64,000 nt of DNA from Salvelinus alpinus (taxonomy: Eukaryota; Chordata; Actinopteri; Salmoniformes; Salmonidae): positions 5,576,390 through 5,640,389 of the forward strand of contig NC_092110.1 in NCBI RefSeq assembly GCF_045679555.1, read 5' to 3'. How positions within the stretch are numbered: position 1 is the stretch's first letter; every line of letters begins with the position of its first letter. Of this stretch, positions 60,064 through 61,670 are shown in pieces. Made by a program: the position numbers and the translations under genes. The notes beneath the pieces were generated by a model. It was given only the letters and a program-made list of their open reading frames with translations, was not told where the DNA came from and made no database searches.

Positions 60064-61670
60064 CAGTGGGGAGAACAAGTATTTGATACACTGCCGATTT
60101 TGCAGGTTTTCCTACTTACAAAGCATGTAGAGGTCTGTAATTTTTATCATAGGTACACTTCAACTGTGAGAGACGGAATCTAAAACAAAAATCCAGAAAA
60201 TCACATTGTATGATTTTTAAATAATTAATTTGCATTTTATTGCATGACATAAGTATTTGATACATCAGAAAAGCAGAACTTAATATTTGGTACAGAAACC
60301 TTTGTTTGCAATTACAGAGATCATACGTTTCCTGTAGTTCTTGACTAGGTTTGCACACACTGCAGCAGGGATTTTGGCCCACTCCTCCCTACAGATCTTC
60401 TCCAGATCCTTCAGGTTTCGGGGCTGTCGCTGGGCAATACGGACTTTCAGCTCCCTCCAAAGATTTTCTATTGGGTTCAGGTCTGGAGACTGGCTAGGCC
60501 ACTCCAGGACCTTGAGATGCTTCTTACGGAGCCACTCCTTAGTTGCCATGGCTGTGTGCTTCGTGTCGTTGTCATGCTGGAAGACCCAGCCACGACCCAT
60601 CTTCAATGCTCTTACTGAGGGAAGGAGGTTGTTGGCCAAGATCTCGTGATACATGGCCCCATCCATCCTCCCCTCAATACGGTGCAGTCATCCTGTCCCC
60701 TTTGCAGAAAAGCATCCCCAAAAAATGATGTTTCCACCTCCATGCTTCACGGTTGGGATGGTGTTCTTGGGGTTGTACTCATCCTTCTTCTTCCTCCAAA
60801 CATGGCGAGTGGAGTTTAGACCAAAAAGCTCTATTTTTGTCTCATCAGACCACATGACCTTCTCCCATTCCTCCTCTGGATCATCCAGATGGTCATTGGC
60901 AAACTTCAGACGGGCCTGGACATGCGCTGGCTTGAGCAGGGGGACCTTGCGTGCGCTGCAGGATTTTAATCCATGACGGCGTAGTGTGTTACTAATGGTT
61001 TTCTTTGAGACTATGGTCCCAGCTCTCTTCAGGTCATTGACCAGGTACTGCCGTGTAGTTTTGAGCTGATCCCTCACCTTCCTCATGATCATTGATGCCC
61101 CACGAGGTGAGATCTTGCATGGAGCCCCAGGCCGAGGGTGATTGACCGTCATCTTGAACTTCTTCCATTTTCTAATAATTGCGCCAACAGTTGTTGCCTT
61201 CTCACCAAGCTGCTTGCCTATTGTCCTGTAGCCCATCCCAGCCTTGTGCAGGTCTACAATTTTATCCCTGATGTCCTTACACAGCTCTCTGGTCTTGGCC
61301 ATTGTGGAGAGGTTGGAGTCTGTTTGATTGAGTGTGTGGACAGGTGTCTTTTATACAGGTAACGAGTTCAAACAGGTGCAGTTAATACAGGTAATGAGTG
61401 GAGAACAGGAGGGCTTCTTAAAGAAAACCTAACAGGTCTGTGAGAGCCGGAATTCTTACTGGTTGGTAGGTGATCAAATACTTATGTCATGCAATAAAAT
61501 GCAAATTAATTATTTAAAAATCATACAATGTGATTTTCTGGATTTTTGTTTTAGATTCCGTCTCTCACAGTTGAAGTGTACCTATGATAAAAATTACAGA
61601 CCTCTACATGCTTTGTAAGTAGGAAAACCTGCAAAATCGGCAGTGTATCAAATACTTGTTCTCCCCACTG
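60064..61670 (-). mobile_element. Young full-length Tc1-like transposon
   Basis: TA at 60062-60063 and 61671-61672. The terminal inverted repeats are about 196 bases long (60064-60261 and 61473-61670), start CAGTGGGGAGAACAAGTATT, and show no difference between left and right in a base-by-base reading. One gene inside, on the minus strand. Length 1,607. Identical ends point to recent insertion. Confidence 0.96.
60280..61302 (-). pseudogene. Tc1 transposase with a single stop codon
   Basis: DD34E transposase, 340 codons in one frame from ATG 61302-61300 to TAA at 60282-60280. N-terminus [20 protein letters not shown], helix-turn-helix, then [20 protein letters not shown]. Catalytic residues: [13 protein letters not shown] (D), [11 protein letters not shown] (D), 34 residues later [11 protein letters not shown] (E). 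The only break is TGA at 60690-60688, after FSAKGTG and before [10 protein letters not shown]. The base pattern (TGA where CGA would fit) suggests a C-to-T change at a CpG. All catalytic residues and both flanks of the stop are in the same frame. Confidence 0.93.

What the first reader, a model, noticed from the sequence alone, without database searches (positions are those of the whole stretch)
60064..61670. Tc1 element with identical ends and one nonsense codon
Directly seen: about 196-bp terminal repeats with no difference found between them, and a 340-codon DD34E transposase frame interrupted only by TGA at 60688-60690. All other Tc1 copies in the window are badly decayed. Inference: this family was active recently and may have intact copies elsewhere in the genome.
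Basis: partly seen in the sequence, partly recalled or inferred. Interest (0 to 1): 0.7.

Follow-up and report, generated by a model that had tools for sequence, protein, structure and literature searches.

The report
Tc1 transposon spreading without working transposase
The window holds one copy of a large, recently active family of jumping genes, and its broken enzyme gene is an inherited fault shared by dozens of closely related copies, so this lineage has most likely been multiplying with an enzyme supplied by other copies.

Summary
At 60064-61670 lies a 1607-bp Tc1 element with 198-bp perfectly matching ends, TA at each side, and a 340-codon DD34E frame interrupted once, by TGA at codon 205. 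The family was recently active: its core has 14,552 matches in the genome, and six stop-lineage copies are identical over 1607 bp at six sites with different flanks.

The stop is not a private hit: the 40 closest copies all carry it, as do 45 of 56 further copies with a lineage marker, and the frame drifts about neutrally. Identical ends are not a clock: 3 of 40 lineage copies and 1 of 23 scorable sampled copies have them, and the six identical copies differ at three arm positions.

The window's subgroup is also a mosaic: ends like a lineage with a shared frameshift, interior like the stop lineage (29 sites, two switches). Best reading: a coding-dead Tc1 lineage moved in trans by intact relatives (5 of 30 sampled copies have uninterrupted frames) and reshuffled by repair between copies. 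The processes are known; the case is a clear example.

The parts
60062..60063 (.). TA target site, left
   Evidence: TA on both sides in 40 of 40 fetched full-length copies
60064..60261 (+). left terminal inverted repeat, 198 bp
60077..60090 (+). outer 14-bp direct repeat of the left arm (IR/DR layout)
   Evidence: the same 14-mer at arm positions 14 and 188
60251..60264 (+). inner 14-bp direct repeat of the left arm
   Evidence: in the right arm 11 bases of it are kept
60280..61302 (-). transposase frame, 340 codons plus TAA
60691..61302 (-). upstream piece, 204 aa: two helix-turn-helix domains and catalytic D153
60688..60690 (-). TGA at codon 205; CGA in 27 of 30 position-sampled copies; a CpG site
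60283..60687 (-). downstream piece, 135 aa: rest of the DDE domain with D244 and E279
60803..60803 (-). stop-lineage marker, element position 740 (R167H)
   Evidence: 40 of 40 lineage copies; seen in none of the 30 sampled copies, one of which lacks the site in its best alignment
61047..61047 (-). stop-lineage marker, element position 984 (D86Y)
   Evidence: 40 of 40; none of the 30 sampled, two of which lack the site; 95 exact matches to its 34-base pattern genome-wide
61428..61428 (+). stop-lineage marker, element position 1365
   Evidence: 40 of 40; none of the 30 sampled, three of which lack the site
60647..61428 (.). interior tract of stop-lineage type (minimum extent; next informative sites at 60564 and 61513)
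61473..61670 (-). right terminal inverted repeat, 198 bp
61671..61672 (.). TA target site, right

Best explanation
This is a full-length, non-autonomous copy of a Tc1 (DD34E) family. Shown: its stop codon is shared by descent in a lineage of at least 85 seen copies, that lineage has multiplied very recently, its frame shows no sign of constraint, and the window's subgroup is a mosaic of two lineages that each carry a shared coding lesion. Inferred: transposase made by intact relatives binds the IR/DR ends and moves these copies in trans (cut-and-paste into TA). After excision the break is sometimes refilled from another copy, which raises copy number and can put the interior of one lineage between the ends of another; arm-to-arm or copy-to-copy conversion also made the window copy's two ends identical.
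For: Stop shared by 40 of 40 best-scoring full-length copies and by 45 of 56 further copies found through the non-CpG marker 984A. Separate insertions: TA at both ends in 40 of 40; 500-base flanks share only pieces of 60-333 bp at 71-98% identity. Six copies identical over 1607 bp. Changes in the frame shared by two or more copies are 16 N to 3 S, as expected without selection and unlikely under omega 0.3 (P 0.0004-0.003). Mosaic: 29 sites read 11 F, 15 T, 3 F, reached by 0 of 20,000 shuffles; derived sites alone 15 of 6435 orders. Uninterrupted frames with D, D and E present in 5 of 30 position-sampled copies. Movement in trans, vertical inactivation and gap repair are established for such elements (passages of PMC3878927).
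Against: No transposase source is identified. The five uninterrupted copies lie 0.87-1.56% from the main-family majority, so they are older than the burst. The one copy with the lineage's background (740T and 984A) but CGA at codon 205 has its own stop at codon 257. Private changes upstream of the stop are 13 N to 6 S, pN/pS 0.62, which neutrality explains but which does not exclude weak constraint. No movement was observed, and there is one assembly only. A leaky stop is not strictly excluded.
Confidence: 0.85

Rival explanations
1. The TGA is read through or recoded at low level, so the lineage still makes its own transposase, or makes both a short DNA-binding form and a full form.
For: The stop is shared by all 40 near copies of a multiplying lineage, and TGA followed by C is a comparatively leaky context (recalled).
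Against: No sign of constraint downstream of the stop: shared changes 11 N to 2 S, P 0.0035-0.015 under omega 0.3. Residue 247 is P in 20 of 30 sampled copies but T or L in the 40 stop-lineage copies, and three single copies add stops at codons 20, 242 or 279. A lineage with a frameshift, which stop read-through cannot explain, multiplied too.
Confidence: 0.03
2. The TGA arose many times independently by deamination at a CpG and is not inherited.
For: It is a CpG site. 5 of the first 100 listed matches carry TGA, none of them among the 95 marker-bearing places, so recurrence, or at least other origins, does happen.
Against: 40 of 40 near copies carry it together with three other fixed markers seen in none of 30 sampled copies.
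Confidence: 0.03
3. The near-identity reflects segmental duplication, assembly smoothing or homogenisation, not recent transposition.
For: Exchange between copies clearly occurs in this family. Two marker-bearing frameshift copies lie about 190 kb apart on one contig and may be a duplication.
Against: Flanks differ and TA is present at both ends in 40 of 40. Groups keep distinct shared differences plus private changes, which smoothing would erase.
Confidence: 0.06
4. The mosaic pattern of the window subgroup is chance parallel mutation or shared ancestry, not exchange between lineages.
For: Some end sites are merely ancestral in the subgroup and need no exchange. The frameshift lineage is represented by only 7 sampled copies.
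Against: 8 derived frameshift-lineage alleles all lie in the ends and 7 derived stop-lineage alleles all in the middle. Mean differences swap sides by segment: 3.8/18.3/0.4 to the frameshift lineage against 13.4/4.1/2.7 to the other stop-lineage copies. The same left block occurs on other interiors in L051 and L070.
Confidence: 0.05

Closest known systems
DTSsa1 / Group 1 Tc1 of salmonids and lampreys (de Boer 2007, PMC2198921; Kuraku 2012, PMC3516227)
   Same: TA site, CAGT ends, about 200-bp repeats with outer and inner direct repeats, about 1600 bp, 340-aa DD34E frame; bursts, neutral frames, most frames broken.
   Different: The six published Group 1 primers mismatch the window copy at 24 of 126 positions, while that paper finds Group 1 copies at 92.5-100% to their consensus. 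A sister family is more likely; the primers may sit at discriminating sites, and no whole DTSsa1 sequence could be compared.
Sleeping Beauty (built from salmonid Tc1 copies)
   Same: IR/DR layout (recalled for Sleeping Beauty), domain order, and a DDE triad that aligns without a gap; chain 5cr4_A matches both pieces.
   Different: Many residues differ in those alignments. Copies much closer to 5cr4_A by eye lie elsewhere in the window, near 13823-15066 and 38444-39246.
Vertical inactivation and trans-mobilised non-autonomous elements (reviewed in PMC3878927, passages)
   Same: Coding lesions are nearly neutral for the element because transposase acts in trans.
   Different: Here the lesion-bearing lineage kept full length and nearly the whole frame, not a short MITE form.
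Sequence exchange between dispersed Tc1 copies in C. elegans (Fischer 2003; title seen in a reference list; content recalled)
   Same: Chimeric copies, explained by break repair from another copy.
   Different: There strains were compared over short times (recalled); here a mosaic in a vertebrate genome is shared by 12 seen copies.

Membership tests
Tc1/mariner superfamily, DD34E Tc1 group | TA target site duplicated at both ends | tested here: met
   window and 40 of 40 fetched full-length copies
Tc1/mariner superfamily, DD34E Tc1 group | DDE triad with 34 residues between the second D and E | tested here: met
   D153, D244, E279
Tc1/mariner superfamily, DD34E Tc1 group | two helix-turn-helix domains plus DDE domain | tested here: met
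   PF25787, PF01498 and PF13358 above cut-off
IR/DR type of fish Tc1 element | about 200-bp arms with direct repeats at outer and inner ends | tested here: met
   14-mer at arm positions 14 and 188; 11 bases of it in the right arm
DTSsa1 / Group 1 | at least about 92.5% identity to the Group 1 consensus | tested here: inconclusive
   only six primers could be compared: 102 of 126 positions match, which speaks against
SSTN1, SALT1, DTSsa9 or DTSsa10 | sequence identity to the reference copy | not testable with these tools
   I had no reference sequences; only lengths and ends from the paper's table
Autonomous transposon | uninterrupted transposase frame | tested here: not met
   TGA at codon 205
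Non-autonomous element moved in trans | intact ends, dead coding frame, multiple recent copies | tested here: met
Non-autonomous element moved in trans | mobilised by transposase from another copy | not testable with these tools
   needs an experiment

The most novel reading that the evidence does not exclude
In this genome the units that multiplied most recently are systematically coding-dead: separate close-knit lineages carry different shared lesions (a stop at codon 205, a one-base deletion near codon 163, a stop at codon 175) and trade interiors by repair, so dead full-length copies act like interfering particles that outcompete autonomous ones, while conversion shuffles which lesion goes with which ends.
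Probability: 0.15. Interest if true: 0.65.

Novelty: new member of a known kind. Interest (0 to 1): 0.42.

Why it matters
It gives a readable natural record of vertical inactivation in progress in a large animal genome: a traceable nonsense codon, its spread to at least 85 seen copies, and an exchange of sequence with another dead lineage. It also warns that matching terminal repeats of a DNA transposon, unlike those of LTR elements, do not date an insertion.

Tried and rejected
Searches of viral contigs with each protein piece, of prokaryote genomes with the first piece, and of plasmids and phages with the element found no relative, as expected for an element of animals. Two text searches for the end sequence in papers found none. 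Dating by arm identity alone (K under 0.76% at 95%) was dropped once the copies showed that arm identity varies by lineage and not by age. The Glan and Barb primers of PMC1192797 match no better than shuffles. CpG content of the element is ordinary for the window (69 of 150 tiles lower). The Rfam scan of the window gave no match at gathering scores. Genome-wide totals of TGA and of CGA at codon 205, and a count of the frameshift lineage, were asked for and never answered.

Full report
What is there. The element at 60064-61670 is 1607 bp, flanked by TA on both sides, with arms that match over 198 bp without a difference and differ from position 199 on. The arms have the IR/DR layout: a 14-base word at positions 14 and 188 of the left arm, 11 bases of it in the right. 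The minus-strand frame has 340 codons and one internal stop, TGA at codon 205. Before the stop lie the two helix-turn-helix domains and D153; after it D244 and E279. The only solved structures matched by sequence are of Sleeping Beauty transposase.

Copies in the genome. The window lies in an unnamed 2.37-Gb genome of 928 contigs. A search with the element scored 40 of 2281 first-look candidates; all 40 are full length at 99-100% identity, the window copy being one of them. A 30-base core pattern around codon 205, with the codon left open and up to two mismatches, has 14,552 matches, and none for the reversed control. The first 30 of these by position (L049-L078) served as a sample not chosen by likeness over the whole element. 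It is limited to the first 12 Mb of one contig and to exact core matches.

The stop is inherited. All 40 near copies carry TGA at codon 205; that search ranks copies by likeness to a query with that base, a bias of one mismatch at most. In the 30 sampled copies the codon is CGA in 27 and TGA in 3; in the 100 matches listed it is CGA in 94, TGA in 5 and CAA in 1 (counted by hand). The site is a CpG, so recurrent loss is expected. Within the window's lineage the stop is nevertheless inherited: the 40 copies also share 740T, 984A and 1365C, which none of the 30 sampled copies shows (one, two and three of them lack those sites in their best alignment). The non-CpG marker 984A has 95 exact matches to its 34-base pattern genome-wide, 39 of them in the 40 known copies. 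Of the other 56, codon 205 is TGA in 45, CGA in 10, and missing in one truncated copy. The stop lineage therefore has at least 85 seen copies (40 + 45). One of the 10 CGA copies has the lineage background at 740 and 984; it has its own stop at codon 257. Of the other nine, three were read in full; they have a one-base deletion and stops at codons 172 and 334.

The lineage is young and consists of separate insertions. Mean pairwise difference among the 40 is 13.7 bases (0.85%); six copies are identical over 1607 bp. All 40 have TA on both sides, and their 500-base flanks share only pieces of 60-333 bp at 71-98% identity. With no change in 6 x 1607 bases, divergence since their common source is below about 0.03% (my arithmetic, 95% bound); at an assumed 0.5-1 x 10^-8 per site per generation that is below roughly 30,000-60,000 generations. 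The 18 sampled main-family copies lie 0.75-1.56% from their majority.

The frame shows no sign of selection. Changes shared by two or more of the 40 copies number 16 nonsynonymous and 3 synonymous; about 72-78% nonsynonymous is expected under neutrality, and omega 0.3 gives P 0.0004-0.003. Private changes are 23 to 8 in all; upstream of the stop they are 13 to 6, a ratio of 0.62 that fits neutrality but could hide weak constraint. Some of the shared changes are the mosaic sites described below, so they are not all separate events. Three single copies have further stops, at codons 20, 242 and 279.

Ends are not a clock. 3 of 40 lineage copies and 1 of 23 sampled copies with both arms covered have identical arms (7 of 30 could not be scored). 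The six identical copies share three arm differences. In the window's subgroup, seven copies keep left-arm differences at 103 and 158, while the window copy and four others do not. Conversion by the other arm or by another copy is the likely cause.

The subgroup is a mosaic. Seven of the 30 sampled copies form a lineage with a shared one-base deletion in a TTT run of the frame and other markers; one more sampled copy, L068, has that deletion without most of the markers. At the 29 sites that separate this lineage from the other 28 stop-lineage copies, the 12-copy window subgroup (by majority) reads frameshift type 11 times, stop-lineage type 15 times, then frameshift type 3 times: two switches, reached by 0 of 20,000 shuffles. 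Restricted to derived alleles the order is seven, seven, one (15 of 6435 possible orders). Mean differences to the two lineages swap sides across segments. The breaks lie between 60564 and 60647 on the left and between 61428 and 61513 on the right. Seven of the 12 copies, the window copy among them, deviate from the majority pattern at one or two sites. The same left block occurs on other interiors in L051 and L070, so exchange is recurrent. The tree of the 40 copies, which ignores recombination, gives the 12-copy subgroup and the other 28 as two well-supported sides.

Other dead lineages. The seven frameshift copies differ from each other by 0-12 bases, and a stop at codon 175 is shared by L051, L063, L066 and L067, which are less close to each other (6-30 bases). 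So the stop lineage is not the only coding-dead one with several related copies. Uninterrupted frames with D, D and E present occur in 5 of the 30 sampled copies. These show that possible transposase sources exist; none is shown to be one.

Mechanism. Transposase from intact copies cannot tell intact from broken copies, so lesions accumulate and broken copies ride along; excision breaks can be refilled from a homologous copy (passages of PMC3878927). Exchange between dispersed Tc1 copies in worms is reported by Fischer 2003, which I know from its title in a reference list and from memory; the paper is not held. These two processes explain the shared stop, neutral frame, recent spread and mosaic. 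That transposase came in trans is inferred, not observed.

Known context. De Boer 2007 (PMC2198921; passages and parts 2 and 3 of 5 of the text) lists salmonid Tc1 families with CAGT ends and about 200-bp repeats and describes bursts. Kuraku 2012 (PMC3516227; abstract, Results and Discussion, Methods) reports near-neutral frames and mostly broken copies in Group 1. Krasnov 2005 (PMC1192797; abstract, first part of Results, Methods) cloned seven copies of two trout elements, one of them young, all with disabling mutations. Lien 2016 (PMC8127823; passages) reports ongoing Tc1-mariner expansion in Atlantic salmon. My searches for work on a shared stop in trans-mobilised full-length copies, and on exchange between Tc1 copies (listings only), showed none on this case, which is weak evidence of absence. 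The exact published family could not be fixed: Group 1 primers match at 102 of 126 positions.

Noticed in passing
window 52516-53196 (minus strand): Open frame of 227 aa that matches the CECR6/TMEM121 family (PF14997, E 9e-53); a likely host gene about 7 kb from the element. The frame at 56221-56598 looks like its first part (by eye, from memory of the family; not tested).
   Followed up: partly
window 21413-26212: A 4.8-kb tandem array of a 38-base unit, about 125 copies, 79% matches, rich in CCAT.
   Followed up: no
window 31993-34184: Retroelement-like reading frames (by eye) around a GTCT microsatellite at 33613-33951; the same protein stretch is read on both sides of the repeat. The piece 31996-33036 gave no Pfam match.
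   Followed up: partly
window 4387-5064: Reverse transcriptase fragment (PF00078, E 7e-23).
   Followed up: no
window 13823-15066 and 38444-39246: Decayed Tc1 copies that by eye resemble Sleeping Beauty, separate from the element studied.
   Followed up: no
window 62012-62469: The right flank of the element holds an 84%-identical piece of an older repeat also present near 1146-1549 and 3139-3598, stretches that hold Tc1-like protein matches.
   Followed up: no
L009-L048, insertion sites: Insertion sites favour an alternating AT run around the TA: A at -5 in 37 of 40, T at -4 in 29, A at -3 in 31, T at +5 in 31.
   Followed up: no
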